Assembly (NCBI GenBank): GCA_946554445.1
Contig: CAMNSD010000004.1
Location: forward strand, 62,001 to 126,000
DNA length: 64,000 bases
Source of the DNA: an uncultured Lachnospiraceae bacterium
GTDB taxonomy: Bacteria > Bacillota > Clostridia > Lachnospirales > Lachnospiraceae
Direction of reading: 5' to 3'
Part shown: piece after piece, positions 5,243-25,823 of the stretch
Layout of the letters: each line of letters begins with the position of its first letter
Numbering within the stretch: position 1 is the first letter of the stretch
Position numbers and translations under genes: made by a program
The notes under the pieces: model-generated
What the model saw: only the letters and a program-made list of their open reading frames with translations
The model's database searches: none
Told to the model about the DNA's origin: nothing

Positions 5243-5311
5243 GATTGGGAATCCTCCTTGTCAAACTAGTATGTTTTTCTCATCTTATAGCAGCTTCCCA
5301 ATCCTGTCTTG

Positions 5312-7510: not shown

Positions 7511-7536
7511 ATCATCCTTAAACCCGCTCTCTCCTG

Positions 7537-8148: not shown

Positions 8149-8338
8149 GCTATCACTTCCTTATGATGATAAGGCACTTCCCTGTGCCTGTGCTGTTTAT
8201 GAATATCCCGTTTCGTATGTTTTCCTGACGGGGTATTCCATTGCCTATGCTTATATATAGATATCGGCATATTCCATGGATTTCTACAGGTTAAATGGGG
8301 GATTGCTTATCACAACCTGCTTTATCGCCATCTGCGGT

Positions 8339-8953: not shown

Positions 8954-8993
8954 AATATCCTGTCCTCTCTGGCTGATATTTTTCCAAATCAAT

Positions 8994-9431
8994 TTATAGC
9001 ATTTTATGATAAAACGCTACGGCGCCACGGATTTCTTCTTCGGTGGGATGCCCTTTGGCGATACCGCCAATCAACTTGAACGGGCCATAGGTATCGTAAC
9101 CCTTACATCCATAGCTTCCCATCACCTTCGCGCCGTTTGCTTCCAGTGTCTTGGTAATATTTTTCACATATCCATCGCTGGGATTCCCACAGGTATAGAG
9201 AAGAAAGACATTCACATCTCTAGGTATTTTTGTGGCAAAGTTTTCTGTACGCTTGTAAAATTTTCCATAGGCAATCCCTGCGGCAAGACCAACCATATCA
9301 TAATCTGACAGGTCTATGGCCTCTGCATTCTCAATGCTGACAACATCCACATTTTGCTCTGCCGCAATTGCCTCCACAAGTTTCTTCGTATTCCCATGAT
9401 GAGTGGATTCATAAATGATGATCGTTCTCAT
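8994..9431 (-). CDS. Flavodoxin-family protein
   Basis: The 145-residue protein begins with the FMN phosphate-binding loop YESTHHGNTKKLVEAIA, equivalent to the T-x-T-G-N-T motif of flavodoxins. A second loop (LAAGIAYGKFYKRTENF) and LLYTCGNPSDGYVKN provide the expected isoalloxazine contacts. It acts as a cytoplasmic electron carrier or flavin reductase; the partner is unknown. It lies 40 bp upstream of the Fic gene on the same strand and may be co-transcribed. Confidence 0.88.
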   Translation of the reverse strand: MRTIIIYESTHHGNTKKLVEAIAAEQNVDVVSIENAEAIDLSDYDMVGLAAGIAYGKFYKRTENFATKIPRDVNVFLLYTCGNPSDGYVKNITKTLEANGAKVMGSYGCKGYDTYGPFKLIGGIAKGHPTEEEIRGAVAFYHKML

Positions 9432-9746
9432 AAAATGTGCCTCCTGTCATTCCAAACAGCTTGAAAGATACAACGCTTCTAAATTTTCATGATAACTATG
9501 ATATAATAGTATCGTTCTATGGCATCAAAATCAACAAAAAGATAAATTACCCTTTTCTTTTATGCATTCAATATAACACTTACCACCGTTTGGATTTAAC
9601 AGGATAAGCAATAGAAATAATTGTACCGCGTAATTACATCACAGCCAGCATCAAGCTCTCTCCGACAAAACAAACCACACAAAATCGGGCATACCACCTG
9701 GCGCAAAGCTATACTACAATTACAGCAACAGCAAAGGAGACAGACC
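9432..9746. other. Divergent intergenic region between flavodoxin and AraC genes
   Basis: A 315-bp AT-rich spacer between divergent genes. A TATAAT hexamer lies at 9502-9507 on the plus strand, without a convincing -35 partner. The AAGGAG ribosome binding site of the AraC/GyrI gene lies near its right end (about 9735). An upstream in-frame start at 9621 is open, but its translation is basic and glutamine-rich and does not look coding. Confidence 0.4.
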
Positions 9747-10604
9747 ATGGAATGGATGAAGGCAATCGGAGACGCCGTAGATTACATCGAGACACATATC
9801 ACAGAAGATATTGACACGGATGCCGTGGCCAGACATGTCTGCATTTCACCCTTTTATTTTCAGAAAGGCTTCAGTATGCTCTGCGGCTACACCGTTGCGG
9901 AATATATCCGGAACCGCAGGCTGGCCCTGGCAGGAGGGGAACTGATTGCAGGCAATGTGAAAATTATCGATCTCGCTCTCAAATACGGTTATGATTCCCC
10001 CGATAGTTTTACGAAAGCCTTTACCCGGTTCCACGGCATCACCCCTTCTATGGCGCGCAAGGAAGGCATAATGTTAAAGTCCTTTGCCCCGCTGAAACTG
10101 ACAATCTCTTTGAAAGGTGGTTATCTGATGGATTACAAGATTACGAAAAAAGAAAGTTTCACGGTACTGGGTTTTTCCCGCACTTTTGTCTACGAAAATG
10201 CCAACCGTGACTGCCCTGCTTTTTGGCAGGAACATTACGCCCAGGGCCGCGGACGGTATGTACACGGCATGTTTGGTGTGAACATTGACTGTTTTATGGG
10301 ACATGAAAGTTTTGAATATCTGATTGCAGATCCCTACAATCCAGCCATGGATATCCCGGAAGGCTTCGTGGTAAAGACCATTCCCGCCTTCACCTGGGCA
10401 GTCTTTCCTTGTATCGGCCCTGCGCCGGATACCATGCAAAACATCAACACCAGAATCTTCTCCGAGTGGCTCCCCGCCTTAAAAGAATATGAACTGGCGG
10501 CAGGTTACTGCATCGAAATGTATGACAATCCGGAAAAATACCCGGAAGGGACTTTGGATGTAAATTATCACGCGGAAATCTGGTTCCCCGTTACTAAGAA
10601 ATAA
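9747..10604 (+). CDS. AraC-family regulator with GyrI-like effector domain
   Basis: The 285-residue protein has an N-terminal AraC DNA-binding domain (residues about 8-110: ITEDIDTDAVARHVCISPFYFQKGF and LKYGYDSPDSFTKAFTRFHGITPS) followed by a GyrI/SOUL-like ligand-binding domain (residues about 125-285) ending LDVNYHAEIWFPV, as in the Rob/SoxS-like BltR/TipAS class. AAGGAG lies 7 nt before the ATG at 9747. Such regulators usually control efflux or detoxification genes in response to lipophilic drugs. No obvious target lies downstream; a strong terminator follows directly, so it is probably monocistronic. The neighbouring flavodoxin gene is divergent and may share control. Confidence 0.9.
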   Translation: MEWMKAIGDAVDYIETHITEDIDTDAVARHVCISPFYFQKGFSMLCGYTVAEYIRNRRLALAGGELIAGNVKIIDLALKYGYDSPDSFTKAFTRFHGITPSMARKEGIMLKSFAPLKLTISLKGGYLMDYKITKKESFTVLGFSRTFVYENANRDCPAFWQEHYAQGRGRYVHGMFGVNIDCFMGHESFEYLIADPYNPAMDIPEGFVVKTIPAFTWAVFPCIGPAPDTMQNINTRIFSEWLPALKEYELAAGYCIEMYDNPEKYPEGTLDVNYHAEIWFPVTKK

Positions 10605-11436: not shown

Positions 11437-11454
11437 TTTGAGATCCATTATCCT
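11437..11454. repeat. 18-bp direct repeat, right copy, at the surface-protein stop codon
   Basis: Identical to 10662-10679. On the minus strand it holds the final Gly codon and TAA of the 2258-residue surface protein gene. Together the copies enclose exactly the PIN toxin-antitoxin module. Confidence 0.85.
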
Positions 11455-14400
11455 CTATCATTTTGCGGCTCTTTTTCTTTCCTGCGCAACATAATCACAA
11501 CCACTGCCGTCACCACCGCTATCAGAATCAGCCAGATAAAGCAACAGATTCCAAAGAATGTGGGGCAGATATGGCAAAGTTCGCATTTTAGACTGCCGCC
11601 TGCTTCTGTTGTATCTATCTCCGTGTATGCGATGGCATAGCTTGAGAACCGGTCTGTGCCAATCGTGATAGTTCCAGGCACATCATCCATGTCATTCATA
11701 AAGGCATACGCCTCTTCGTGGGCACGGATAATATAAAATTCTCTGCCATCACTTAGCAGTCTTTCAGGAATACCAATCACCACTTCTATCGGTTCATCCG
11801 CCTCGGTAATAGGATTCCAATCGTCCTCTCCAATCTTGATAAACATGGAGATGTCAATATACATGCCAAGTTCAAGCCCCGGCACCTTTTTCTGATACTC
11901 CTCAATGCCTTTTTCTATTAGCGCTTTATCCTGCTCTGGCACCTGATTGGAAATGTCTTTTACGTCAATTCTAATCTCCACGGTTTCGCCGTTATTCACA
12001 AGTTCCAACTGTTCCGGCATCAAAACCGCATTTGCTACAGCAATGGTATCTGTCACGCCTGCAGTATATTCCTGTTCCGCACAGACTACCGTTACAATAA
12101 CCGCACCGCTGCCCACTTGTAAGGCCGTACTCGTTTCAGTCATGCCTTCCACATTTCCTATTGTCACAGGTTCGCCGGATATGACAAGCTCTCCGTTATC
12201 TACGGATACCGTAACAGTCTGCTCTCCGCCCTGTCCCGGCTGCTCGTTCTCTGTTTCGGACGATTTCATAACAGGTTCTTGTGTTCCAGTATCTTCCTGC
12301 CCTTGCTTATCCGCCGATGTGTCTGCCTGCTGCCCCTGTTGATCGTCCGGCATACCCGCCGCTTGCGATTGCTTCAGCTGAGTCTGATTCGTCGGATTCG
12401 TCTGGACTGTCGGCTGTGGTGTGTCTGCGGGAGGCGTGACCGCTGCCGTAGGTCGTGTGACTACCGGTGTACTAGTATTATTGTTGTTCCCTGGTGCATT
12501 ATTGTCATCATTACCACCATCCTCATCCCCATTATTATCATTCCCGCCGCTTCCGCTGATATCATCTTTGTTGCTGCTTCCTCCACTGTTCCCACCGCCG
12601 GATGGAGGGAGTTTGTCCACAAACCGGATCACAATACTGGCCGAAGTCTGGCCTGTTGCCCACGGTGGCAGTTCCACGGTTCCGTTTATCGTTTCTTCAC
12701 CAAGCGTCCCGCCAAAGTCCCCTCCTATGGAACTTGTATCCCATGTGACTGTCCGTTTTTCTGTTCTCGCCGTATATCCTGTTCCCGTGTAGGCCACTGT
12801 GAACTGTGCGGGAAGCCATGCGCCCACTTCCTGCGCTGTATAGCCGCCCTCCCTCTGTTTCTGTAACAGTGTATTCGGGTTCCGGACGGATGCAGTCACC
12901 GGTCTTACGGTCAGGATAACCTCACAATTCTTACCCCCGGCAGAAGCGGTATAGTGGTACGCCGCACCCTTTCGTACAAAACTGTCTGCTGTGGTAAATG
13001 ATGCCTCCTGTACGACTGCCTTTGTCTGATTATCATAAACTGTCTGCACATTACAGTGGTCTTTCAGGTATGCTGTGAGCGCTGCCTGGTTTTCGTTTGC
13101 AGCATCATCCGCATAGACTGTCAGACTGCCTGGCTGTGTGGTAATCCCGGTAACGGCACGTTTCTTAAACTCCACGGCAATCTGCACGCTTGATGCATCA
13201 TCCGGTATGGTATAGAGGTACTTCCATTTTCCTTTCCCGTCTCCTTCATCCCAAGTCATCCCGGAACCTTCGGCATCGGGTGTTCCCACTCCGGGTATGA
13301 TTTCTTTTCCGTCTACTTTGATGACCGGAGTGTATTCTTCCCCGTAGGTTCCGGTAAAGGTTACTGTTTTACCGTCTACATCGGGCGCATCCGGCTTGAG
13401 TACAGTATTTCCAGGCTGCCCTGCGCCTTCGCCCGTAACATTTGGTTCTTCTATCGTCACATAAGTGCGCACTTCAACTTTTGCAGACTCTGAAGCAAAA
13501 TTGTTTCCCGTTGCTTTCTTCCTTACATAAAGTTCATACTCTTTATTCGGATCAAGTCCCGTAAATGCCCCGCTCTCATTTACTTGATCTACATTTTTCC
13601 AGTCAGGCTCTGCGCCTTCCGGCAGGCTCCCTTTTTCCACAAGGATATATTCTTCCCCTGCAGCCGGGCCTATTATCGTTACCGTAGTATCGGTCACCAC
13701 CGTCTGTTTCGGCGCGGGCGCAGCGGGCCTGCCCGGAATATCTATTTTAACGCTGTCGCTGGCAGGAGTCGTCTCCCCGCCCTCCGTCTTTTGCGGATAG
13801 CGTATATAAATGGACGTTCCCGGTTCCATTGGCAGAGAGCCGTCTGCTTCCGGCTGTATCTTACTTCCCGACGGATCATCTGGATTCGTATAAACTTCCA
13901 CTTCCCCAATACCCGCAGGCAGCTTTACGACCTCTTTCTCGCGGTCTATCGTAATATCATGAATCGTAATCTCCGGCGCCTTCTGCAGGGAGATAAAGCT
14001 GACCGCCTTTACATCAGACAGATTCCCGGCGGCATCTTCCAGTACTACATAGACTTTGTGGCTTTCTCCTGACGTAAGTCCTGTCAGGGCAAAGGCATTG
14101 GACGAACCGCCTATGATATTTTCTTTTACATTGCCATTTTGGGCGCCTTTCTCCACTACTTCCTGTGCATTGGGCGCTGTCACTGGATCCACTAGCCAAT
14201 ATACCTTACCGCCCTCTGAGGGAATAAAGGTGATATCCGCGCCCTCCTGCGTGTGGTTTATAGCCGCAGGGCCCTGGTTGAAAGCAGGCCGCCCGGTATC
14301 GCATTTCACCGTGACTGTCTGCCACCCGCTCTCATTACCCGCATTATCCGCCGCTTTTACATAATAGGTGTGTGTACCATCGGTATCTACGGATATGATA

Positions 14401-17400
14401 AACGTTTTTTCATACACAGGAGAAGCACCAGGCAATCCTGACACCGTCTGCTCTGCGCCGTTTTCTCCGTCTTTCCAGACGATCCGGGCAAGGCCGCCGG
14501 AAAGAACGGCCGTATTCTTGTCATCTTTATCATCCGTCACGATCACTGTGACAGAAATCGCCGCGTTATACCAGCCGTTTTCATTGGGTGTCGGCGTATC
14601 GGGCAGGTTGATGGTCACTACAGGCGCATAATCCTCCGCGATGACTTTACCGCCGTCTGTTGTAAGACTTACCTGCGTGATATTGCCGGCCCTGTCCTTA
14701 GCCGTCAGCCGAATCGTACCGGTAAACTCCCTGTTCAGGGCAATCTCGTAATAACCGCTCTTCGCCCCAATCGTCTGAGTCTGCGGTTCGCCGCTGTCAG
14801 GAACTGCCGTATAAGTCACTTCCCCAACCCCAGAGCCGGTATCTGTTATATCATTTTCTGGTATATGGATTATCATACTCTTTTTGCCGATAATCCAGTG
14901 CCAGACGTTTTTTGAGCCATCTGTCACCGTCATGTTGGAAAGATCGATCACCGGCGGCGTTTTATCCAGCTTATAAGGAAATTCCGTCTGATAGATATTT
15001 CCGTTTTCGTCTTTGACATAAATGGTCTTTGTGCTGCCCTCCGTTCCTGTTTCATCCGCAATGATAACGGCAGTATTCCCTATCCCCGCGGGCGTCTCGC
15101 CCACACTGCTGCCGCCCTTGGGGCTAAAGGTGATGTCGGAACTATACCACTCCTCCACGGGCGCAGGATTGACCGCAACATAATCCGCCAGGCTCTTGTC
15201 GGCGGGAAGCGGTCTGTATTGGATTGTAAACGCCTGACCGGCTGTGCCCTTGTAATTGCCTTTTCCTTCCACTGTAACTGTGGCTGTGCCCGCATTGGTG
15301 TTATTTTGATAGGTAACGGTATAATCTGTGTCTTTGGTCAGGGTATAGAGACCGTCTTTGACCGTCACAGCTGGCATGATGACACTACCGGTATAATAGT
15401 ACGGCCCGGCAGGTACGACTACCATGCTGTCTGTCAGCGTTTTGGGTACAATCTGAAAAGCTGCCGTCCTGGTGCCGGTATAGTTGCCATTTCCCGTAAG
15501 GGTTATTGTATAAGTTCCGGCGGCTGTCCCCTTGTTGCCGCTTATGGCGTAATCCGTTCCTTCGGTCAGCGTCAGTGTCTTTGCGCCCGCCGTAATGGTG
15601 ACACTGTTTATGCCCTTTGTCTGTTCTAACCCTGTGTAGGTCAGAGCCGTGCTATCTAAGGCGACCGTTGCACCGCTTATGTTACAGGCATCGATCTTTA
15701 CCTGTGCAGATCCCGTCACGGTATTATAATTCTCTCTTGTTATTTGATAATACACGGTATACGTGCCGATATTGGTATAGCCAGGATTGGTTGTCAACGT
15801 ATAGCTCCCGGATGCCGTTTCCCTGTATTTCACAGTCGCTCCTGCGGGAGCATTCACCGTAATCCCATGGGCCGCCGCATCATAAGTGCCTGTGTAACCG
15901 CTTGCCGTCACGCCCGTCATATCCGCCTTCGTAATTTCAAAGGTGACAGCCGCCGTCTTGCCGCCAATGGTCAGTTTCGCCGTGGCGGTTCCGGCATTGG
16001 TATTATTGGTATAACGAATCTTTGTATCGTCCGGCTGATCCGCGCCGGTTCCCGCCCAGCTGTCACTGTAAGTAATTGTGGCCGGTTTGAGCGCGCTCCC
16101 GGTATAGGTCAGATCCGCGCCGCTCTTGACAGAAAGGGTGGCTGTGGCGGAGTGACCGCAGTTATCCGCGCATGTCTCCGTAATGACCGCCCCGCTTGCG
16201 GCATAAGATAAGGTATGGGTATGGGCAACAAGGAGAATCTGATTATTTACGAGTTTTAATTCTCTGTTCCCTATGTTATCTCCTGTCAGATGAAGATACG
16301 CCAAATCCGACTCCGTTATCGTATAGTCGGAGCCCTCCGCGACCACCGAACCATCGGTAAAATTTGCCTGCGGATTGATGTAAATGTCTGCGCCGGACGA
16401 AAGCGGTCCGTCCAGATAGAACTTCTTCCCACTGCTCATCCACAGTCCCCCGCCTTCCTCGCCGATGATTGGGGAACCGGAGAGATAAAGTGCAACCCAA
16501 TCCTTAATGAAACCCTTCATACATCCGCCGGATACATATGCTGAGTTTGCCCTAATATCATTGCCTACTTCACCACCTCCAAGCCACGTTCCACCTGTCA
16601 TATAAAGAGTAGCACTTTTAGGATGATTCTCACTCGGTCTTATATTAGATAATCCTAACAGTGTTCCCCCTTCTATATGAATTTTTACATCCATATTTTT
16701 AAAAACATCTACTAATTCCCCACGTTCTCCAGTTCCCGTTTCTTCATCCTGATAGCCGTAATAGTCATTCACCCATGTGGCAACCACACCGGAATCTGTC
16801 AAATCAAAACCGCTGTCTACATCTCCGTATCCCTGAAAGGAATAGTTGATACCGGACTTACTACTAATCTCCCCTAAATTGGCCAGATCAATAGGCGTAT
16901 CAGAACCGGTATAATATACCTTCGTCTTATCACCCTCCCCTGCCTTCAAAGTAAGATTATTTCCCATAGCATAAACCTGCGATCCAACACTTCCCCAACC
17001 CCTGACAGGCGCATAGCCGGTTCCGCCCCATGCGGGAAGTTCCGCATATAAATCCGTCTCTCCCATAATCTGGGCATACTCCCACCATGCCATGAGATTT
17101 GTATAGATTTCTTCCGGTATCTGTGCCTGTTCTGCCTCCGTAAAAGCGTCATATTCTTTCCTTAAAGCCTCCGCCTCCGGGACCGCTTCCAAAAAGCGCT
17201 CTTCCCACGCTTCGTACCCTTCTTCCTCCTCGCCGGGGGCGTCCTCCAACATAGCCTCCAGATCCGGCAGGGCTTCGGCGCGTTCTATAAAGAGCAGGAT
17301 GTTCTCTCCCACCGTCACCCGGATTTTGGGCAGGCTGACACCCTCCGCCAGAGTATATTCTTCCGGCAGAGACGCTGTAAAAAGATAAACTCCTACCGTA

Positions 17401-18224
17401 TTTTCATCATAGTCCGGTTCGCTGTGCCAGGTGACACCTTCTATGAGAATCGTCTCTTCGTCATCTGTTTCGCAAACCTTCTCTTCTACCGTCACAATAT
17501 TTTCCGCCTGGTATTCCGGCATGGTAACGGTATGAGTTTCCTGTCTGAGTCCTGTTTTTTCTGATTTTATTTTTATGCTGTCTGTGGCATTGGCTTCATT
17601 CCGCCCTGTGGAATCTGAAGCTGCTTCCTTATCTTGGCCTTGTACAACTGTAATTTCGCCAGAGTTATTATTTTCATCCTGACTGTTTTCATCACCAGTT
17701 TCATTGGTGCTATGATTCTTATCTTTGTCGTTCTCGTCTCCGACTTCGTCCGTACTGTCGTTCTCATCCCTGCCATCTTCACCGTCAGTTTCGTCAGGAC
17801 TGTCGCTCTCATCCCCGCCGTTTTCACCGTTATTTTTGTCCAAACCGGCCTTATCCTCATCCGTTATCTCTCCGGTGTTTAAGCCGCCGTCATCCTTTTG
17901 GGCATCATCTGCCTGGTCGTCATCCTCTTCGGGTATATCCTCATTGCCCTTTCTGGTAACGACCGCCTCCAGCGTATCCGGCAGGGACAACTCATCAAGC
18001 CCTGTCCCCAACGGTACTGTCTGTTCCCTGACCTCCTCCGGCAGTGTGACAAAATCAGACACATACTGTCTGTCTTCCCTTTCTGATTCCCCGGCCGCAA
18101 AGACAGATAGTGCTGTCACGATGTTGGGATTTGCCGTAAGCAGCATACCCAAACTGAGCATTCCCGTCAGTATGCGCAGACGCCTCTTTTTTCTTGATTT
18201 AAACCATACACGTTGTTCAGTCAT
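11448..18224 (-). CDS. Giant membrane-anchored surface protein with tandem Ig-like repeats
   Basis: A 2258-residue secreted protein. Residues 1-44 form a signal peptide (basic start, hydrophobic core, cleavage near VFAA). An Asp/Asn/Glu-rich low-complexity stretch follows (about 85-210), then a region of repeated GG-turn strands suggestive of a beta-solenoid (MTGGTWLGGGEVGN, ALYLSGSPIIGEEGGG; about 530-640), and many Ig/MBG-like repeats (TYTGSALKPATITYSDS, GNGNYTGTRTAAFQI, GKGNYKGTAGQAFTI). A Ser/Gly/Asn- and Thr/Pro-rich linker precedes a C-terminal domain. The anchor is a membrane helix (FFGICCFIWLILIAVVTAVV) with a basic RRKEKE tail; there is no LPxTG. Likely an adhesin or mucus/polysaccharide-binding protein. 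Its long leader carries a pentanucleotide repeat and a terminator-like hairpin. Its stop codon lies in an 18-bp repeat. Confidence 0.9.
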   Translation of the reverse strand: MTEQRVWFKSRKKRRLRILTGMLSLGMLLTANPNIVTALSVFAAGESEREDRQYVSDFVTLPEEVREQTVPLGTGLDELSLPDTLEAVVTRKGNEDIPEEDDDQADDAQKDDGGLNTGEITDEDKAGLDKNNGENGGDESDSPDETDGEDGRDENDSTDEVGDENDKDKNHSTNETGDENSQDENNNSGEITVVQGQDKEAASDSTGRNEANATDSIKIKSEKTGLRQETHTVTMPEYQAENIVTVEEKVCETDDEETILIEGVTWHSEPDYDENTVGVYLFTASLPEEYTLAEGVSLPKIRVTVGENILLFIERAEALPDLEAMLEDAPGEEEEGYEAWEERFLEAVPEAEALRKEYDAFTEAEQAQIPEEIYTNLMAWWEYAQIMGETDLYAELPAWGGTGYAPVRGWGSVGSQVYAMGNNLTLKAGEGDKTKVYYTGSDTPIDLANLGEISSKSGINYSFQGYGDVDSGFDLTDSGVVATWVNDYYGYQDEETGTGERGELVDVFKNMDVKIHIEGGTLLGLSNIRPSENHPKSATLYMTGGTWLGGGEVGNDIRANSAYVSGGCMKGFIKDWVALYLSGSPIIGEEGGGLWMSSGKKFYLDGPLSSGADIYINPQANFTDGSVVAEGSDYTITESDLAYLHLTGDNIGNRELKLVNNQILLVAHTHTLSYAASGAVITETCADNCGHSATATLSVKSGADLTYTGSALKPATITYSDSWAGTGADQPDDTKIRYTNNTNAGTATAKLTIGGKTAAVTFEITKADMTGVTASGYTGTYDAAAHGITVNAPAGATVKYRETASGSYTLTTNPGYTNIGTYTVYYQITRENYNTVTGSAQVKIDACNISGATVALDSTALTYTGLEQTKGINSVTITAGAKTLTLTEGTDYAISGNKGTAAGTYTITLTGNGNYTGTRTAAFQIVPKTLTDSMVVVPAGPYYYTGSVIMPAVTVKDGLYTLTKDTDYTVTYQNNTNAGTATVTVEGKGNYKGTAGQAFTIQYRPLPADKSLADYVAVNPAPVEEWYSSDITFSPKGGSSVGETPAGIGNTAVIIADETGTEGSTKTIYVKDENGNIYQTEFPYKLDKTPPVIDLSNMTVTDGSKNVWHWIIGKKSMIIHIPENDITDTGSGVGEVTYTAVPDSGEPQTQTIGAKSGYYEIALNREFTGTIRLTAKDRAGNITQVSLTTDGGKVIAEDYAPVVTINLPDTPTPNENGWYNAAISVTVIVTDDKDDKNTAVLSGGLARIVWKDGENGAEQTVSGLPGASPVYEKTFIISVDTDGTHTYYVKAADNAGNESGWQTVTVKCDTGRPAFNQGPAAINHTQEGADITFIPSEGGKVYWLVDPVTAPNAQEVVEKGAQNGNVKENIIGGSSNAFALTGLTSGESHKVYVVLEDAAGNLSDVKAVSFISLQKAPEITIHDITIDREKEVVKLPAGIGEVEVYTNPDDPSGSKIQPEADGSLPMEPGTSIYIRYPQKTEGGETTPASDSVKIDIPGRPAAPAPKQTVVTDTTVTIIGPAAGEEYILVEKGSLPEGAEPDWKNVDQVNESGAFTGLDPNKEYELYVRKKATGNNFASESAKVEVRTYVTIEEPNVTGEGAGQPGNTVLKPDAPDVDGKTVTFTGTYGEEYTPVIKVDGKEIIPGVGTPDAEGSGMTWDEGDGKGKWKYLYTIPDDASSVQIAVEFKKRAVTGITTQPGSLTVYADDAANENQAALTAYLKDHCNVQTVYDNQTKAVVQEASFTTADSFVRKGAAYHYTASAGGKNCEVILTVRPVTASVRNPNTLLQKQREGGYTAQEVGAWLPAQFTVAYTGTGYTARTEKRTVTWDTSSIGGDFGGTLGEETINGTVELPPWATGQTSASIVIRFVDKLPPSGGGNSGGSSNKDDISGSGGNDNNGDEDGGNDDNNAPGNNNNTSTPVVTRPTAAVTPPADTPQPTVQTNPTNQTQLKQSQAAGMPDDQQGQQADTSADKQGQEDTGTQEPVMKSSETENEQPGQGGEQTVTVSVDNGELVISGEPVTIGNVEGMTETSTALQVGSGAVIVTVVCAEQEYTAGVTDTIAVANAVLMPEQLELVNNGETVEIRIDVKDISNQVPEQDKALIEKGIEEYQKKVPGLELGMYIDISMFIKIGEDDWNPITEADEPIEVVIGIPERLLSDGREFYIIRAHEEAYAFMNDMDDVPGTITIGTDRFSSYAIAYTEIDTTEAGGSLKCELCHICPTFFGICCFIWLILIAVVTAVVVIMLRRKEKEPQNDRG

Positions 18225-18772: not shown

Positions 18773-18802
18773 TTTACAATTCCGTTTAAAACATGCTATA
18801 GT
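18773..18802 (+). promoter_or_regulatory. Candidate promoter of the Rpn gene
   Basis: TTTACA (18773-18778) and TATAGT (18797-18802) are separated by 18 nt, leaving a leader of roughly 180 nt before the ATG at 18987. Confidence 0.45.
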
Positions 18803-18986
18803 AGGAAAAAGCATATTTTCTACTTAACAAATCAATATTTTCTATATTTTATTCTAAGTTTCAGAAAATCCATGCTTTGCATCCCATTAACCATTGTAAA
18901 AGCAGGAGGATCTGGAACGGTTCTCCTGTACCGGCAGCCAATCTCTTATGTGGAATGTCTGTCGGGTATCATTAAGGAGGACACAA

Positions 18987-19937
18987 ATGAACGAGACAAA
19001 AGTAAATGCAACAAACAAAATTAACGAATCAACCCAAAACCAAACCAAGGTACAGCGCAACTACAAGGATACCGTATTCCGGATGATTTTCCGGGAAAAG
19101 GACAATCTGCTGAGTCTGTACAATGCACTAAACGGCACGGCTTATGATGAGACGGACAATCTGGAGATCACCACACTGGAAAATGCAGTCTATATGAATT
19201 ATAAGAATGACATTTCCTTTGTGTTTGATTTTGAACTGATGCTCTATGAACACCAGTCCACATGCAATCCTAACATGCCGTTACGGGATTTGCTCTATGT
19301 GACCAGAGTGCTGCAGGACCGGGTTAAGGATAAGAATCTGTATAGTAAATCACTTATTAAGATTCCGGCGCCTCGGTTTGTCGTTTTTTATAATGGAACA
19401 GACTGGCAACCGGAACAGCAGATATTGTATCTGTCGGATGCTTTTGAAAAAAAGCAGAACGAACCTTCTCTGGAACTGTCAGTGATTGTGTATAACATCA
19501 ATCTTGGACATAATTGTGAACTGTTGGAAGCATGCCACCTGTTAAAGGAATACGCGCAGTATGTAGCATTAGTCAGGACTTATGCGGAGGAATTACCCTT
19601 GTCAGAAGCCATTGAAAAAGCGGTGGATGATTGTATCAGAAATGGTATCCTTTCAGATTTTTTAGCAAAGAATCGTGCGGAGGCGATAGCGGTGAGTATT
19701 TTTGAATATGACGAAGAGAAACACATGAAAAGTGAGCGCAAGGAATGGCGTGAGATTGGTTACCGGGAAGGCCATGAAAAAGGAATTACTATTGGCCGTG
19801 AAGAGGGCCTTAAGGCAGGCTTTGACCTTCTCAAAACTATGATGGATAACGGAAAAACCGAGGAGGTAAAACGCGCCCTTTCCGACAATGACTACAGAGA
19901 GCAACTATGCCAGGAATATTTATCAAAAACCGAGTAG
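18987..19937 (+). CDS. Rpn-family recombination-promoting nuclease / PD-(D/E)XK protein
   Basis: The 316-residue protein has the Rpn/transposase_31-like core: KDTVFRMIFREKDNLLSLYNALNGTAY, a D-x-E strand (DISFVFDFELMLYEHQST, around residues 75-92) and RFVVFYNGTDWQPEQQILYLSDAF. Rpn proteins are DNA endonucleases linked to RecA-independent recombination and phage defence. The ATG at 18987 has AAGGAGG 6 nt upstream. The C-terminal 80 residues are a charged tail (EWREIGYREGHEKGITIGREEG) typical of the family's variable end. Within it, GGAGG at 19679-19683 stands 8 nt before an in-frame GTG at 19692, matching the gene-within-gene layout described for E. coli RpnL/RpnS. The tail region is duplicated downstream. 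Confidence 0.88.
   Translation: MNETKVNATNKINESTQNQTKVQRNYKDTVFRMIFREKDNLLSLYNALNGTAYDETDNLEITTLENAVYMNYKNDISFVFDFELMLYEHQSTCNPNMPLRDLLYVTRVLQDRVKDKNLYSKSLIKIPAPRFVVFYNGTDWQPEQQILYLSDAFEKKQNEPSLELSVIVYNINLGHNCELLEACHLLKEYAQYVALVRTYAEELPLSEAIEKAVDDCIRNGILSDFLAKNRAEAIAVSIFEYDEEKHMKSERKEWREIGYREGHEKGITIGREEGLKAGFDLLKTMMDNGKTEEVKRALSDNDYREQLCQEYLSKTE
19637..19749 (+). repeat. 113-bp perfect direct repeat, copy 1 (inside the Rpn gene)
   Basis: Identical base for base to 19950-20062 (offset 313). It begins abruptly at CAGAAATGG and covers the internal GGAGG and GTG start. Similarity continues, with mismatches, for about 60 nt beyond the perfect part. Confidence 0.97.
19679..19694 (+). promoter_or_regulatory. 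Internal ribosome binding site and GTG start within the Rpn gene
   Basis: GGAGG (19679-19683), an 8-nt spacer, then GTG (19692-19694) in the reading frame of the host gene. The site is preserved unchanged in the downstream copy (19992-20007). Confidence 0.7.
19692..19937 (+). CDS. Predicted intragenic small protein (RpnS-like) from the internal start
   Basis: Translation from the internal GTG would give an 81-residue protein beginning MSIFEYDEEKHMKSERKEW and sharing the Rpn C-terminus. In E. coli, RpnS proteins made this way from rpn genes bind and block the full-length nuclease. Here the evidence is the near-ideal Shine-Dalgarno spacing, the position at the border between the nuclease core and the variable tail, and conservation in the second copy. 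Expression is inferred. Confidence 0.55.
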   Translation: MSIFEYDEEKHMKSERKEWREIGYREGHEKGITIGREEGLKAGFDLLKTMMDNGKTEEVKRALSDNDYREQLCQEYLSKTE

Positions 19938-19949
19938 TTCAAATTTCAC

Positions 19950-20062
19950 CAGAAATGGTATCCTTTCAGATTTTTTAGCAAAGAATCGTGCGGAGGCGAT
20001 AGCGGTGAGTATTTTTGAATATGACGAAGAGAAACACATGAAAAGTGAGCGCAAGGAATGGC
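19950..20062 (+). repeat. 113-bp perfect direct repeat, copy 2 (downstream of the Rpn gene)
   Basis: Identical to 19637-19749. Its left junction falls 12 bp after the Rpn stop codon with no similarity before it. Confidence 0.97.
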
Positions 20063-20259
20063 ACGAGATTGGTTATCGGGAAGGCCATAAAGTTGGAATT
20101 AATACTGGCCGCAAAGAAGGGATTGAAACAGGCAGCGACAACCTTGCCAAACTGCTGCAATCCCTGACAGAAGCCGGAAAAACCGAGGAGGTCAACCGTC
20201 TCCTCAATGATCATGACTATCGCCAAAAGCTAGTCAAAGAATATTCGGAAATTCTCTGA
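20005..20259 (+). CDS. Orphan Rpn C-terminal cassette / free-standing RpnS-like protein
   Basis: A second copy of the Rpn tail without a nuclease core. From the GTG at 20005 (GGAGG 8 nt upstream) it encodes 84 residues, identical to the first tail for about 18 residues and then diverging: IGYREGHKVGINTGRKEGIETG and a different end, LLNDHDYRQKLVKEYSEIL. An open frame extends upstream to 19888 but only because it overlaps the Rpn 3' end. It could be an extra antitoxin, a donor cassette that replaces the Rpn tail by recombination, or the remnant of a second rpn gene after a deletion. The secreted CHAP-like gene starts 37 bp further on. Confidence 0.6.
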   Translation: MSIFEYDEEKHMKSERKEWHEIGYREGHKVGINTGRKEGIETGSDNLAKLLQSLTEAGKTEEVNRLLNDHDYRQKLVKEYSEIL

Positions 20260-21031: not shown

Positions 21032-23036
21032 AATTCTTCACAATCCGATAATAGGTCTGCGCCGTCATCAGATAACTGCCCGCATACAGAAGCGCCACAG
21101 CCGCCGCCACGCCCACACAGCAACGAATCAACAGCCCGGTATCAAAGAAGCGCAGGGCCGCCAGCAAGACATTGATCATCACCATTCCAGCCGCCGTGTG
21201 TAAAAGCGCACCCACAAGAGGCAGGAAAAACACTAACAGTATCTGTCTGTGTATGGTACTTCTAATCTCGCTGTCACTCATGCCTACTTTCTGCATGATC
21301 TCGAAACTGTTCTGATCCTCATATCCTTCCGACACCTGCCGGAAATACATAATGAGCAGCAGACACATAAAGAATAGAATACCAAAGACCAGGCCAATAA
21401 AGAGCAGGCCTCCGTTCAAGGAGCGATTCTCATCCCTGCCGTCTATTCCATTTTCTATCCACAGAAAGTTCTGCTGCCCCTGGCACCACGCTGACCATTC
21501 TTCTATGAAGCCCTTTCTTTCCGCTTCTTTCCCGTCAAGTAAAATACCCAGATGCCGCTCACCCCTGTGTAAAAAGTCCTCAAAATCCGTAACGCCGTTT
21601 ACTTCGCCCCAGGCTCGTGCAAACCTGTTTAGAGTATCTTCATCCTTTACCACCATCACATACCGCGAAGTAAAGTTAAACATCCGGTTCTTAGCCTGGG
21701 GATAAGGATAAACCTGCTCCGGTTCCTCTTTGACGGATGCCTCCACACCCATAAAATTGACGCTTTCAAAGCCGAACTGCGTCCCGGTGGAATACAGAAG
21801 CACTTCTCCCTCTTCCAGACTCTGGTTCTGTCTCTCTAGACGATTATAGTCATCCAATGTAAGCAAAATAACACTATACTGATCTGCAAAGGCCAGATTT
21901 GCCGCAGATATGAAGGCATTGCTTCCCTGCAGTCTGCCACAGGAAAGTTTCATGGCGTTATAGTAATCCAGCCTTTCTATGTCCTGCCCATATTTTATCG
22001 AAAGTTCCTCCGCCTTTTCTCTGGCTTTTTCGATCACATCACTATGCTCCGAATAAGCTGCCTGCAAGTCATAAGGATAATCATAATAGGCAATCTGATC
22101 CATCCCTGCCCATAAAGTGACCGTACAAGTCAATGTAATTAAAAGCATGGTAGAAAAGATACAGATATTGGACAAGCCCGCCGCATTCTTTTTCATGCGG
22201 TACAACATGCCAGAGATTGTCACCTGATTGGCTGGTCTATAGTAGATACTTTTTCTTGCTTTTAAAAATCTTAAAAAAGCCACGCTTCCCGAAGTGAACA
22301 GGAAATAAGTCCCCAATATCACCAGAAAGACTGCCAGGAAAAAGTCCGTGAAGATCATGCTGTCCAGTTTGCTGGTGATTGAGATATAGTAACCGCACAC
22401 CAGCGTCATCACCCCGATCACAGCCCACAGCCAGATATGCTTTACTTCCCGTTCCCCCTTCTTGCTCTCTGCCATCAATTCGGTAGGTTTCAGCCGATAA
22501 AATTCCCAGAGACTTTTACCATAAACACACACAAATACCAGCGCAAAATACTGGAGCGTCTCTATGACCGCCTCCATGGAAAAATAAAATGCCACCTCCA
22601 CATTTAGCCGCGACATACGAAGTAACAGCAAAAACATCAGTTTATTCAGCACAAATCCCAGTATGATACCCGTAAAGACACTGACCAGATAGAGTCCGGC
22701 ATTTTCCCACAAAAGCATGATGCCGATATGTTTTCTCTCCAATCCCAACAGACTGTAGAGTCCCAGTTCCCGCTTCCGTCTCTTCTGTAAAAAACTGCCC
22801 GCATAGAGCAGGAACAACAGCAGGATAATAGAAAGCAATCCTTTGCCAATACTTAACATCATCCATGCATAAGCCGCCTTTGGCAATCTCTCCATCAGGT
22901 CATTGTGCAGAAGGGAGGAAAAAAGATAGTAACTGAATACGGAAAAGAAACAGGTCAACAGGTAAGGCCGGTAAACCAGCTGATTCTGCTTGACTCCTCT
23001 ATAAGCCATCACAGGCAGTAACTTCATCTTATTCAT
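21018..23036 (-). CDS. BceB-type ABC transporter permease (peptide resistance)
   Basis: A 672-residue FtsX-family permease with about ten membrane helices and the large extracellular domain (about residues 300-525) between helices 7 and 8 that defines BceB/MacB-like peptide-detoxification permeases. It starts MNKMKLLPVMAYRGVKQNQ and ends with three helices and a KNFNIW tail. It overlaps the ATPase gene by 4 bp. With the kinase and response regulator upstream it forms a BceRSAB-type module, which frees lipid II-cycle intermediates from bacitracin-like or lantibiotic peptides and signals transporter flux to the kinase. Confidence 0.92.
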   Translation of the reverse strand: MNKMKLLPVMAYRGVKQNQLVYRPYLLTCFFSVFSYYLFSSLLHNDLMERLPKAAYAWMMLSIGKGLLSIILLLFLLYAGSFLQKRRKRELGLYSLLGLERKHIGIMLLWENAGLYLVSVFTGIILGFVLNKLMFLLLLRMSRLNVEVAFYFSMEAVIETLQYFALVFVCVYGKSLWEFYRLKPTELMAESKKGEREVKHIWLWAVIGVMTLVCGYYISITSKLDSMIFTDFFLAVFLVILGTYFLFTSGSVAFLRFLKARKSIYYRPANQVTISGMLYRMKKNAAGLSNICIFSTMLLITLTCTVTLWAGMDQIAYYDYPYDLQAAYSEHSDVIEKAREKAEELSIKYGQDIERLDYYNAMKLSCGRLQGSNAFISAANLAFADQYSVILLTLDDYNRLERQNQSLEEGEVLLYSTGTQFGFESVNFMGVEASVKEEPEQVYPYPQAKNRMFNFTSRYVMVVKDEDTLNRFARAWGEVNGVTDFEDFLHRGERHLGILLDGKEAERKGFIEEWSAWCQGQQNFLWIENGIDGRDENRSLNGGLLFIGLVFGILFFMCLLLIMYFRQVSEGYEDQNSFEIMQKVGMSDSEIRSTIHRQILLVFFLPLVGALLHTAAGMVMINVLLAALRFFDTGLLIRCCVGVAAAVALLYAGSYLMTAQTYYRIVKNFNIW

Positions 23037-23818
23037 GATTCCTCCTCCCTCTCATATCCCGGCCCCTGCTGTGCCTGCATCACGGTCAGCGCATCGGATA
23101 TCATCCGATACATCTCATCCCGGTCATGGCTGCCCCTGTAAATCTGATGGAACACACAGCCATCCTTGATAAAAAGCACCCGTCCAGCATGGGCCGCTGC
23201 CTGCATACTGTGCGTCACCATAAGAATGGTCTGACCTTCTGCATTGATCTCCCCAAATAGTCCCAGAAGTTTTCCGGAGGCCCTGGAGTCCAGCGCCCCT
23301 GTGGGCTCGTCCGCCAGCACAATATCCGGTCTCGTAATCAGCGCCCTGCATACTGCCGCCCGCTGTTTCTGCCCACCGGACACTTCGTAGGGATATTTAT
23401 CCAACAGGTCGTTGATCGCTAATTTACGGGCAAGGGGTGCAAGCCGCTCCTCCATCTCCCGGTAAGGCACACCTGCCAATACCAAGGGCAGGAAAATATT
23501 ATCCCGCAGGGACATGGTATCCAACAGATTAAAGTCCTGAAAGACAAAGCCCAAGTGATCGCGCCGAAATGCACACAGGTCTTTCTGACTGACTTTGGAA
23601 AGTTCCTGGCCGTTTAACAGTACCTGCCCGCTGGTAGCCGCATCCAGGGAGGCCAGGATATTTAAGAGGGTGGTCTTACCGGAACCAGACTCACCCATGA
23701 TGGCCACATACTCCCCTTTTTCCACGGAAAAGTTTACGTCATTTAATGCCTGCACCTTGACGGAACCAAAGCGGGTAGTATATATTTTCTTTACATTTTT
23801 GACTGTTAGCAGTGGCAT
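23033..23818 (-). CDS. BceA-type ABC transporter ATP-binding protein
   Basis: The 261-residue ATPase has Walker A GESGSGKTTLL (near 40), signature VSGGQKQRAAVCRAL (near 145), Walker B IVLADEPTGALDS (near 165) and the H-loop TH of MVTHSMQAA. It is of the MacB/LolD group that partners FtsX-fold permeases. Its stop overlaps the permease start, fixing the pair. A 180-bp gap with a terminator hairpin separates it from the kinase gene, so bceAB-like and bceRS-like genes are probably separate transcripts. Confidence 0.94.
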   Translation of the reverse strand: MPLLTVKNVKKIYTTRFGSVKVQALNDVNFSVEKGEYVAIMGESGSGKTTLLNILASLDAATSGQVLLNGQELSKVSQKDLCAFRRDHLGFVFQDFNLLDTMSLRDNIFLPLVLAGVPYREMEERLAPLARKLAINDLLDKYPYEVSGGQKQRAAVCRALITRPDIVLADEPTGALDSRASGKLLGLFGEINAEGQTILMVTHSMQAAAHAGRVLFIKDGCVFHQIYRGSHDRDEMYRMISDALTVMQAQQGPGYEREEES

Positions 23819-23947
23819 AAAGTCCTCCTTCTGATAAAATCAACAAATTTTCAACAGACATCCCCGCTGTTTCACACAGACCTTTATCAGGCTGTGAGAA
23901 ATCGGTATTGCCTGTTATCTGTCTTATCTCTGATTTACATCATAAAC

Positions 23948-23987
23948 AAAAAGGAAATGCCCTGCCATGTATCCGGCTTACATTTCC
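23948..23987 (-). terminator. Terminator between the BceS-like and BceA-like genes
   Basis: GGAAATG and CATTTCC form a short stem starting just after the kinase stop codon, followed on the minus strand by TTTTTG. Two TTACATTT direct repeats (about 23979-23986 and 23998-24005) straddle the same stretch and could be part of a response-regulator site for the ATPase-permease promoter; that second reading is weak. Confidence 0.5.
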
Positions 23988-23997
23988 CTGTCGTAAC

Positions 23998-25056
23998 TTA
24001 CATTTTTGTAAGGATTTCCTCTTGGGCAATGCCCAGAAACACCTTGGTCCCCTCATTCCGCCTGGACTCCACATGGATGGATAACCCCAGCCTATCCATG
24101 ATCTGTCTGCACAGATACAGGCCAATGCCTGTGGATTTATTCCCCATACGGCCGTTGTAACCAGTAAATCCCCGCTCAAAGATTCTGGGCAGGTCCCCTT
24201 CCTCAATACCAATCCCCGTATCTTCAATCACAAGATAACGGCACCCTTCTTTCACATGACTGCCCGTCTCATCCGCCCCATAAATGGAGATAGCGCCCTC
24301 TTTCGTGTACTTGAGGGCATTGAACAGTACCTGCTCTATCACAAAGGAAAACCACTTACCATCCGTTACCACCTGGGCATGGCACTCTTCCAAATACAGG
24401 TTCAATCCCGCCCCGCTAAAGAGGATCCAATACTTTTTCAAAGCGCCTTTCACCAGTTCTCCCACATCCAGCCTGGTAAAGGAAAGGTCTGCGGAAATAC
24501 TCTCCATTCTCGCATAATGCAGGGCCATATCCACATACTGGCCTGTCTTAAATACTTCCTCCCGCAGCTGCCTTACTACCTGTATTTCCCCCTCTTCTCC
24601 CGCTACTTTGCTAACATTTTGTAAAAGCAGATCCATGGCCGAAAGCGGTATCTTAATCTGGTGCGTCCACATGGTATAATAGTCCGCCATGTTTTGCTGT
24701 CTCTCATCCAATCGTGTAATCAGCGCTTTTTTCTCCGACTCCTGTGTTGTGACAATCTGCTGGTATCCCTGCTCTATAGCCGAAGAAGTCTGCGGCAGGA
24801 TTTCACCTCTCTCCTCCGCCGCCAGAAGCCGCTGTAACTCCCGATGCTTTCCCTGATATCTGATATAATCCCACACCAGATAACAGCCGCCACAAAAAGC
24901 CGCCAACCCCAGCGCATAAGTCATGTTGGCAAGCACTCCCTCATAACCGTACAGGGCAGCTATCATCATAAAAATAAGCGCCTCCACAACATATAAGAAA
25001 ACCGGAACAATCCGCTCCCGCAGATATGCTGCCAGTATGGAAAATCTTTTGTTCAT
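23998..25056 (-). CDS. BceS-like intramembrane-sensing histidine kinase
   Basis: The 352-residue kinase has two N-terminal membrane helices (VFLYVVEALIFMMIAALYGY and NMTYALGLAAFCGGCYLVW) with almost no extracellular loop, the hallmark of kinases that sense through their partner transporter. The H-box is MWTHQIKIPLSAMDLLL (His near 148), and the ATPase domain shows NALKYT, DTGIGIEEGDLPRIFERGF and STGIGLYLCRQI. It overlaps the response regulator gene by 4 bp. The likely signal is peptide-dependent activity of the BceAB-like transporter next door. Confidence 0.93.
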   Translation of the reverse strand: MNKRFSILAAYLRERIVPVFLYVVEALIFMMIAALYGYEGVLANMTYALGLAAFCGGCYLVWDYIRYQGKHRELQRLLAAEERGEILPQTSSAIEQGYQQIVTTQESEKKALITRLDERQQNMADYYTMWTHQIKIPLSAMDLLLQNVSKVAGEEGEIQVVRQLREEVFKTGQYVDMALHYARMESISADLSFTRLDVGELVKGALKKYWILFSGAGLNLYLEECHAQVVTDGKWFSFVIEQVLFNALKYTKEGAISIYGADETGSHVKEGCRYLVIEDTGIGIEEGDLPRIFERGFTGYNGRMGNKSTGIGLYLCRQIMDRLGLSIHVESRRNEGTKVFLGIAQEEILTKM

Positions 25057-25751
25057 GATTCACCTCCCAGAAAATATCCTACACCCTTCTTGGTCTGAAT
25101 CAGCTGTGAAAGCCCTATCTCCGCCAGCTTCCTGCGCAGACGGTTCATATTCACCGTAAGGGTATTATCATCTACAAAACACTCATCATCCCACAGTCTT
25201 TTCATCAGCATATCCCGGCTTACTACGCCTCCCGACGCCTCAAAGAGCGTCTGTAAGATGCGAAACTCATTTTTGGTCAGTTCTATCCGGCAATTCTTTT
25301 TATGATACAGAAGCGACATATCCGTCATATTTAGCAGAACACCGCGATATTCCAGGACGGTGCCCGGCGCCGTGAACGCATAGGCCCGTCTTAGAAGTGC
25401 CTGCACTTTGGCCTGCAGGATTTCTAAATCAAAAGGCTTCGTCACAAAGTCATCGCCGCCCATATTGACTGCCATCACCACATTCATATTGTCTGACGCA
25501 GAAGAGATAAAAATAATCGGCACCTGGGATATCTTCCGAATCTCGCCACACCAATAATAACCATTATAAAAAGGCAGCCCTATATCCATCAGCACAAGCT
25601 GGGGCTCATACGATGCAAACTGTCCCATCACATCCGCAAAGTCCTTGACAGTCTCCACCTCATAACCCCATTTCTCCAGATATTTACCAATCTGTCCTGC
25701 AATGACTGCATCGTCTTCCACCACAAGTATTCTGTACATTGCTTTCTCCAC
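25053..25751 (-). CDS. BceR-like response regulator (OmpR family)
   Basis: The 232-residue regulator has a receiver domain (RILVVEDDAVIAGQI; phospho-acceptor in LVLMDIGLPFYNGYY) and a C-terminal winged helix (residues about 135-230: LTKNEFRILQTLFEASGG, ending LIQTKKGVGYFLGG). It starts the two-component pair and should activate the ATPase-permease genes. Start: the ORF opens at 25751 with MEKAMYRILVVEDD; the internal ATG (MYRILVV, 25739) is also possible. Confidence 0.94.
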   Translation of the reverse strand: MEKAMYRILVVEDDAVIAGQIGKYLEKWGYEVETVKDFADVMGQFASYEPQLVLMDIGLPFYNGYYWCGEIRKISQVPIIFISSASDNMNVVMAVNMGGDDFVTKPFDLEILQAKVQALLRRAYAFTAPGTVLEYRGVLLNMTDMSLLYHKKNCRIELTKNEFRILQTLFEASGGVVSRDMLMKRLWDDECFVDDNTLTVNMNRLRRKLAEIGLSQLIQTKKGVGYFLGGES

Positions 25752-25823
25752 TCCTCCATCCTTCCCAAGTATAACTTCATCCCTATTAAATTACAACATT
25801 CCTTTTTCCTGCCACGACTACAT

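What the first reader, a model, noticed from the sequence alone, without database searches (positions are those of the whole stretch)
18987..20259. Rpn nuclease with an intragenic start and an orphan, free-standing C-terminal cassette
The Rpn-family gene (18987-19937) has GGAGG 8 nt before an in-frame GTG (19692) where the conserved core gives way to the variable tail. The 113 bp around this site (19637-19749) recur without a mismatch at 19950-20062, 12 bp after the stop codon, followed by a divergent tail with its own stop at 20259. Established: in E. coli, rpn genes carry an internal start that makes RpnS, which inhibits full-length RpnL. Inference: the second copy may be an extra antitoxin, or a silent cassette that can replace the Rpn tail by recombination through the 113-bp identity, switching inhibitor and specificity together. 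Recombination between the copies would delete exactly 313 bp and yield a new tail in frame or out depending on the frame: the offset 313 is not a multiple of 3, yet the repeat-mediated join keeps the host frame because each copy reads in its own frame.
Basis: partly seen in the sequence, partly recalled or inferred. Interest (0 to 1): 0.82.

Follow-up and report, generated by a model that had tools for sequence, protein, structure and literature searches.

The report
Swapped tail of a nuclease toxin
In a bacterium related to common gut species, a gene for a probable DNA-cutting toxin seems to have gained a new tail segment, which also encodes its antidote, while the old tail survives just behind it with its own start signal; this shows how such toxin-antidote genes could change both partners at once.

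Summary
In detail: 19637-19749 recurs without mismatch at 19950-20062, each copy with GGAGG and an in-frame GTG, and different tails follow. In a sister species' syntenic locus (L044) the single rpn gene carries the downstream tail type, so the cassette is the older tail, displaced by a newer one related to other rpn genes. GGAGG plus start codon is kept in 101 of 107 homologues, against at most 14 in 1000 synonymous-codon resamplings. E. coli rpnE/ypaA has a like layout: of 5426 genomes, 5363 carry the downstream tail and 3101 the upstream one, and in two fetched strains rpnE itself carries the ypaA tail. Intragenic antitoxins, downstream RpnS copies and fusions are published for E. coli (PMC10327210), so this is a new member of a known kind. 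Additions: polarity, a codon-level test of the start, and the likeness to displaced CDI/Rhs modules. Whether the displaced tail is made or neutralises anything was not tested. A conserved RNA-like leader before rpn genes was noticed.

The parts
18773..18802 (+). promoter-like site TTTACA-18-TATAGT with TG before the second hexamer
   Evidence: consensus scan; 7 sites found in the region against 6.0 expected, so weak evidence
18859..18986 (+). conserved 5' leader: hairpin GUUUCAGA/UCUGGAAC with UGCUUU/AAAGCA inside, then CUCCU able to pair with the ribosome-binding site AAGGAGGAC
   Evidence: alignments of the window and 34 related leaders and consensus fold; single-sequence fold of 18815-18990 z -3.26; no Rfam match on the leader
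18987..19937 (+). rpnL: Rpn-type PD-(D/E)XK nuclease (probable), 316 aa, tail type 1
   Evidence: D75, E88, H89 and Q90 are invariant columns in 48 sequences
19637..19749 (+). junction repeat, copy 1
   Evidence: identical to 19950-20062
19679..19683 (+). internal ribosome-binding site GGAGG
   Evidence: GGAGG kept in 103 of 107 homologues; null mean 9.4, maximum 20
19692..19937 (+). rpnS1: predicted intragenic antitoxin, 81 aa, start GTG at 19692
   Evidence: codon 236 is GTG in 65, ATG in 41 and ACG in 2 of 108 rows
19938..19949 (+). 12-bp linker between rpn stop codon and repeat copy 2
19637..19949 (+). 313-bp unit present here and absent from the syntenic sister gene (exact ends are ambiguous within the repeat)
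   Evidence: alignment to L044 shows one gap of 289 bp in the tail region, that is 313 less the 24 bp by which the L044 tail is longer
19950..20062 (+). junction repeat, copy 2
19992..19996 (+). ribosome-binding site GGAGG of the cassette
20005..20259 (+). rpnS2: displaced older tail, free-standing ORF of 84 aa, start GTG at 20005
   Evidence: its distal part groups with the L044 tail at 96/96 support; dN/dS 0.17 to L044 over 46 codons

Best explanation
This is an Rpn gene whose C-terminal tail was exchanged at the junction that holds the internal ribosome-binding site. Before the exchange (a state still seen in the sister species) the gene ended in tail type 2. A tail of type 1, from another rpn lineage, came in between the core and tail 2, and about 113 bp of the junction was duplicated. 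Because the internal start lies at the junction, the exchange gives RpnL and its intragenic antitoxin RpnS the same new tail in one step. The old tail stays downstream with an intact ribosome-binding site, GTG start and open frame, and is most likely still translated from the rpn mRNA as a free-standing RpnS2. Shown here: the repeat, the syntenic single-tail state, the groupings of the tails, the conserved internal start, and two like states in E. coli. Inferred: translation of both small proteins, inhibition of RpnL1 by RpnS1, and the role of RpnS2 (neutralising type-2 toxin left over after a switch or coming from relatives).
For: Synteny and breakpoint: L044 matches the window on both sides (upstream pieces 85-93%, downstream 85-90%), and the alignment runs core, junction, tail 2, stop codon, downstream gene, with one 289-bp gap in the tail region (313 less a 24-bp longer L044 tail). 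L053 also matches on both sides further out and its tail is closer to type 2. Tail affinity: to the L044 tail the cassette's distal 46 aa are 0.87 identical and the gene's own tail 0.45; the own tail is best matched (0.70) by genes with only 0.76-0.79 core identity. Tree: cassette + L044 96/96; own tail with L002/L139/L134 80/51, weak. Recency: 0 of 113 differences between the copies, 10 of 113 to L044 and 8 of 113 to L043. Internal start: 101 of 107 homologues keep GGAGG plus NTG, null mean 5.4, maximum 14; thinned to core identity under 70%, 19 of 23, null maximum 7. Exchange elsewhere: 9 of 49 genes with a core neighbour of at least 85%, the window's among them, have a tail better matched elsewhere; several are partners of each other, so these are fewer than nine events. 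E. coli: K-12 rpnE is followed by ypaA with a repeated junction; in 2 of 2 single-tail strains fetched the tail is 118 of 118 identical to ypaA while the core is 98.9% identical to K-12.
Against: Polarity in the window rests mainly on one sister species (L044). L053 lacks two neighbouring genes, so its rpn may not be the direct counterpart, and its tail was not resolved with the cassette in the tail tree (L125). The immediate donor of tail 1 was not found; its best relatives are about 77% identical in DNA over 135 bp and the support for its grouping is weak. Only one other downstream-tail case of this kind turned up beside 108 distinct full-length genes (L029, cut by a contig end). No internal promoter was predicted before the cassette. 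The low dN/dS covers mostly the time before displacement.
Confidence: 0.72

Rival explanations
1. The tail was displaced as described, but the downstream copy is an inert fossil: it is not made or has no partner, and will decay.
For: RpnS proteins are reported as specific for their own RpnL, and one added 4-aa repeat abolished inhibition (PMC10327210); the two tails here differ by a 4-residue gap and are 65% identical. K-12 ypaA is annotated as a pseudogene. One free-standing tail elsewhere (L145) is broken after 15 aa.
Against: The ribosome-binding site, start and frame are intact in the cassette. ypaA protein (RpnES) was detected with a tag in E. coli (PMC10327210). Six other loci of the genus without an intact core keep ribosome-binding site, start and open tail.
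Confidence: 0.35
2. The cassette is a reversible switch: recombination across the 113 bp deletes the 313-bp unit and restores tail 2 in part of the population.
For: Exact 113-bp identity with matching phase; a single-tail-2 gene is the natural state of the sister; E. coli has both states, 5363 of 5426 genomes with the downstream tail and 3101 with the upstream tail.
Against: Deletion would lose tail 1 from that chromosome, so it is one-way unless tail 1 is acquired again. No population data were available for this species.
Confidence: 0.15
3. The 3' end of the gene was duplicated in tandem and the copies then diverged, with no exchange.
For: Zhong et al. report that E. coli downstream copies cluster with their own upstream tails. 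The tails here are alignable along their length.
Against: The distal part of tail 2 is 0.87 identical to the L044 tail but shares only 55% over 60 columns with tail 1; tail 1 is closer to other lineages. The junction is identical while the adjoining tail is not.
Confidence: 0.1
4. Assembly artefact: two rpn loci were joined through the shared junction.
For: The copy number of a 113-bp exact repeat can be misjudged from short reads.
Against: The step from tail 1 through the 12-bp linker into the repeat is not itself part of the repeat, so collapsing would not create it (reasoning, no reads seen). A like layout is seen in complete E. coli genomes.
Confidence: 0.03

Closest known systems
E. coli rpnE with downstream rpnES (ypaA), and rpnC with rpnCS (Zhong et al. 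2023, PMC10327210)
   Same: Full-length rpn, stop codon, then a repeated junction with its own ribosome-binding site and start and a second tail; single-tail fusions also occur.
   Different: In K-12 the repeat begins right at the stop codon and the ypaA start follows 12 bp on; here the repeat begins 12 bp after the stop and the GTG 67 nt after it. Here the polarity is visible by synteny (downstream tail older) and the tails are of unlike type; the paper groups the E. coli downstream copies with their own upstream tails. The window's core is distant: hhalign of its profile to RpnE gives E 0.00055 at 30% probability.
Displaced orphan toxin/immunity modules of CDI and Rhs loci (PMC4927057, passages seen)
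   Same: A new C-terminal module integrates and pushes the old one downstream; shared sequence allows recombination; retained immunity is one proposed benefit.
   Different: Toxin tail and antitoxin are the same DNA here, so one exchange changes both. No transposase or integrase was recognised by eye among the neighbouring ORFs (not searched). Secretion was not examined.
C. difficile rpn gene whose RpnS was seen in E. coli (PMC10327210)
   Same: Gram-positive Rpn with internal ribosome-binding site and start.
   Different: No downstream tail is described for it in the parts read.

Membership tests
Rpn / YhgA-like nucleases (PF04754, PF12784) | sequence match to the family profiles | tested here: inconclusive
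   Window protein: Transposase_31 E 0.014, 15.5 bits against a cut-off of 21; NCBIfam gave only flagellar FliH and other models far below cut-off. Of 48 aligned members, 28 match Transposase_31 (best 0.0014) and 10 PDDEXK_2 (best 6.3e-06) at E up to 0.1. hhalign to E. coli RpnE E 0.00055, probability 30%.
Rpn / YhgA-like nucleases (PF04754, PF12784) | PD-(D/E)XK fold with conserved acidic residues | tested here: inconclusive
   AlphaFold2 pLDDT 74.9, pTM 0.64. Best Foldseek match is McrBC chain M, E 0.009, none at 0.001; several top hits are PD-(D/E)XK nucleases by recall. D75, E88 and Q90 invariant; their catalytic role is recalled.
RpnL/RpnS intragenic toxin-antitoxin | internal ribosome-binding site and start codon before the tail | tested here: met
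   GGAGG and NTG in 101 of 107 homologues, null maximum 14
RpnL/RpnS intragenic toxin-antitoxin | tail with a long helix that varies by four-residue repeats, followed by short helices | tested here: met
   model: helix 230-287, then helices 291-299 and 301-312; length gaps of 4 residues between tails 1 and 2 and 8 between tail 2 and L044
RpnL/RpnS intragenic toxin-antitoxin | RpnS made separately and blocking its own RpnL | not testable with these tools
   needs expression experiments
Free-standing downstream RpnS copy | second tail ORF with its own ribosome-binding site directly after rpn | tested here: met
   E. coli comparison
Displaced orphan module (CDI/Rhs type) | downstream module equals the gene's tail type in a relative at the same locus | tested here: met
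   L044
Displaced orphan module (CDI/Rhs type) | secreted polymorphic toxin with a separate immunity gene | not tested
   no search for secretion or immunity genes was run; the antitoxin is inferred to be the gene's own 3' part

The most novel reading that the evidence does not exclude
Rpn genes evolve by tail stacking. The junction is held constant at DNA level because it encodes the antitoxin's ribosome-binding site and start, and it doubles as the recombination handle, so each exchange swaps toxin tail and antitoxin together. The displaced tail is kept as a working antitoxin that protects the cell from old-type toxin during and after the switch, and core-deletion derivatives that keep only leader or junction plus tail are stand-alone antidotes against rpn-carrying relatives.
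Probability: 0.25. Interest if true: 0.75.

Novelty: new member of a known kind. Interest (0 to 1): 0.55.

Why it matters
Zhong et al. leave open how rpn tails diversify while toxin and antitoxin stay matched, and how downstream copies arise. A case with visible polarity, and an E. coli polymorphism covering thousands of complete genomes, make both questions testable. The codon-level signature of the internal start gives a simple way to look for intragenic antitoxins in genomes without ribosome profiling.

Tried and rejected
Frame switching: rejected, since each copy has the same phase in its own ORF. Mobile element: no inverted-repeat pair has arms at both ends of the 313-bp unit, and no transposase was recognised by eye in the ORF list (the neighbours were not searched). 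Internal promoter: none predicted on the + strand between the leader and the cassette. Viral source: a scan of viral contigs with the full protein gave 2 pattern matches, neither a relative. Solved-structure sequence search gave one match, E 0.73. Rfam: two weak matches, both outside the leader and far below gathering score. A genus-wide census of orphan tails was not completed: the match lists were cut, and I fetched 20 chosen regions, so no frequency of free-standing tails is claimed. Core-deletion breakpoints near the internal site may partly reflect how those regions were chosen. Weak tail-like frames of a more distant kind in L158-L161 and L167-L169 were not analysed. Only Foldseek 'pdb' was run for the model.

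Full report
Observation. The sequence is as described. The rpn gene (18987-19937, 316 aa) has GGAGG at 19679-19683 and an in-frame GTG at 19692. 19637-19749 is identical to 19950-20062, with no third exact copy on the + strand of the window. Twelve bases separate the rpn stop codon from copy 2. From the second GTG (20005) an 84-aa frame runs to 20259. The longer 191-nt repeat is 90% identical, and the tails then need a 4-residue gap.

Family. The window protein alone is weakly placed: Pfam Transposase_31 at E 0.014, below the curated cut-off, and no NCBIfam model near its cut-off. Of 48 aligned members, 28 match Transposase_31 and 10 PDDEXK_2 at E up to 0.1. A profile of the 48 aligns with E. 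coli RpnE over 135 columns including the EHQS..NM motif (E 0.00055, probability 30%). The AlphaFold2 model (pLDDT 74.9, pTM 0.64) finds McrBC chain M first (E 0.009; nothing at 0.001). With the invariant D75, E88 and Q90 I take it as an Rpn-type PD-(D/E)XK nuclease; formal membership stays below thresholds. The genome-contig scan kept the best 80 of 156 relatives; the record titles are mostly uncultured Lachnospiraceae.

Internal start. From 173 sequences held (172 loci and a piece of the window), 125 distinct frames and then 108 distinct proteins of at least 240 aa were kept. Codon 231 is GCG in 97 of 97 alanines, codon 232 GAG in 106 of 106 glutamates, and codon 236 GTG in 65 of 65 valines and ATG in 41 further rows; two rows have ACG. 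With one row dropped for missing codons, 107 remain: GGAGG in 103 (synonymous null mean 9.4, maximum 20), NTG at 236 in 105 (61.6, maximum 73), both in 101 (5.4, maximum 14), 1000 resamplings. Thinned to core identity under 85, 70 and 60%: both in 60 of 65, 19 of 23 and 8 of 9; at the strictest thinning NTG alone (8 of 9) equals the null maximum. Four rows of the 107 lack GGAGG and two lack NTG. Codons 225-240 show the strongest synonymous constraint of the nine regions compared (0.79 bits against a mean of 0.24). This is comparative evidence for translation from within the gene, not a measurement.

Direction of the exchange. A sister species (CAMNXA010000009.1, L044; also held as G084) has the same flanking genes. 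Its rpn gene continues from core through junction into tail 2, then the stop codon and the same downstream sequence. The alignment has one 289-bp gap there: the 313-bp unit less 24 bp by which the L044 tail is longer. L053 (also G092) matches window 4338-10604 on one side of its rpn gene and 21035-25754 on the other, so it lies in the same region but lacks the 2258-aa gene and the 20297-21031 gene; its tail is closer to type 2, though the tail tree leaves it unresolved. L043, a second rpn gene about 9 kb away in the sister and not found in the window, has a type-2 body but ends like tail 1, another hint of exchange. In numbers (105 of 108 genes usable): to the L044 tail the cassette's distal part is 0.87 identical and the gene's own tail 0.45; the own tail's best matches are 0.70, in genes with core identity 0.76-0.79. 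The tail tree (35 rows, 64 columns, flagged as few) groups cassette and L044 at 96/96, these with L043 at 81/78, and the own tail with L002, L139 and L134 at 80/51. The copies differ at 0 of 113 sites, against 10 of 113 to L044 and 8 of 113 to L043, so the duplication or last conversion is younger than that split.

How general. Of 49 genes with a core neighbour of at least 85% identity, 9 (the window's included, several being partners of each other) have a tail better matched elsewhere. A tail-like frame directly after a full-length rpn was found for the window and for L029, whose contig ends about 120 bp after its stop codon, inside an 80-bp, 98.75% repeat. Of the 108 genes, 101 have at least 300 bp of downstream sequence held, L029 not among them. 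Two further loci hold tandem full or near-full rpn genes (L113, L119). Weaker tail-like frames of more distant rpn-like genes (for example in L159 and L161) were listed and not analysed. Tails without an intact core also occur: of 13 loci scanned, six distinct ones (L153, L154 = L197, L155, L156, L164, L201) keep GGAGG, NTG and an open tail to a stop codon; L151 is cut by its contig end, L145 is broken after 15 aa, and L157, L163, L166 and L203 gave no match to the pattern. In L153, L154/L197 and L201 the conserved leader lies 78-233 nt before the start codon, which suggests deletion of part or all of the core. These regions were hand-picked from cut lists and give no frequency.

E. coli parallel. 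In K-12, rpnE is followed by ypaA, annotated as a pseudogene; the junction repeat starts at the rpnE stop codon and the alignable tails differ by a 12-nt gap (84% over 177 columns). Six other strains were fetched: four have both tails; OW1E2 and HKUOPY1 have one, and in these the rpnE core is 98.9% identical to K-12 while the tail is 118 of 118 identical to ypaA and 75% over 59 bp to the K-12 rpnE tail. The ypaA distal tail is found in 5363 of 5426 genomes and the rpnE distal tail in 3101 of 5426. In a sample of 60 rows taken at even steps down the ranking, the ypaA match lies under the rpnE gene alone in 26. If the 3101 are a subset of the 5363, about 2262 have the downstream tail only. Polarity in E. 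coli is not established.

What is known. Zhong et al. (PMC10327210; parts 1-3 of 4 read) describe RpnS as an intragenic antitoxin specific for its RpnL, separate downstream RpnS copies (rpnE/ypaA, rpnC), loss of such copies, and fusion of the N-terminal domain with the rpnS region; they suggest RpnL may itself start such recombination. CDI and Rhs loci have displaced orphan modules, with two proposals, immunity or reserve (PMC4927057, passages). Searches of the paper library with RpnS/RpnL (501 papers hold a term, 20 listed), 'recombination-promoting nuclease' from 2017 (23 listed), 'intragenic antitoxin' plus 'Rpn' (2 listed) and CDI/Rhs terms (6 listed) showed no other title or abstract start on displaced rpn tails; most subscription papers are not held, and part 4 and the supplement of Zhong et al. 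were not seen.

Mechanism and limits. The scan found no terminator-like site between rpn and the cassette, so one mRNA may carry both; translation of RpnS2 from GTG 20005 is inferred from the intact site. The distal cassette and L044's tail differ with dN/dS 0.17 over 46 codons, the core with 0.06 over 193, mostly reflecting time before displacement. Whether RpnS2 is a buffer, a reserve or a fossil cannot be decided here.

Noticed in passing
window 18859-18986 and 34 related leaders (alignment A3): Strongly conserved 5' leader before rpn: a hairpin, then CUCCU that can pair with the rpn ribosome-binding site (21 consensus pairs in all), while an upstream GCAGGAG could pair with the same CUCCUG: a switch-like layout. 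Covariation is weak (term -0.73; 2 of 21 pairs with two-sided change) because the sequence hardly varies. 34 of the 38 leaders extracted were aligned with the window. No Rfam match on it.
   Followed up: partly
L187, L188, L200, L209: A variant of the same leader precedes a different protein (starting MNFISLKNDYAFRELF or similar), so the leader is not limited to this rpn group.
   Followed up: no
L153, L154/L197, L155, L156, L164, L201: Tails without an intact nuclease core that keep the internal ribosome-binding site, start and open frame; in L153, L154/L197 and L201 the leader lies close upstream.
   Followed up: partly
L043 (contig CAMNXA010000009.1), not found in the window: The sister species has a second rpn gene on the other side of the neighbouring large gene, with a tail that is type 2 in body and type 1 at its end.
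   Followed up: partly
L053 1-11768 against window 4338-25754: In this relative one rpn gene lies between sequences matching window 10604 and 21035: the 2258-aa gene and the 20297-21031 gene are missing, as if rpn copies flanking them had recombined or the genes came in later.
   Followed up: no
L029 2389-2508: Second tandem case: 80-bp repeat of the junction at 98.75% starting about 40 nt after the stop codon, cut by the contig end.
   Followed up: partly
window 11448-18224, minus strand: Large ORF of 2258 aa next to the rpn gene; by eye a signal-like start and a hydrophobic C-terminal stretch, perhaps a surface protein (not searched).
   Followed up: no
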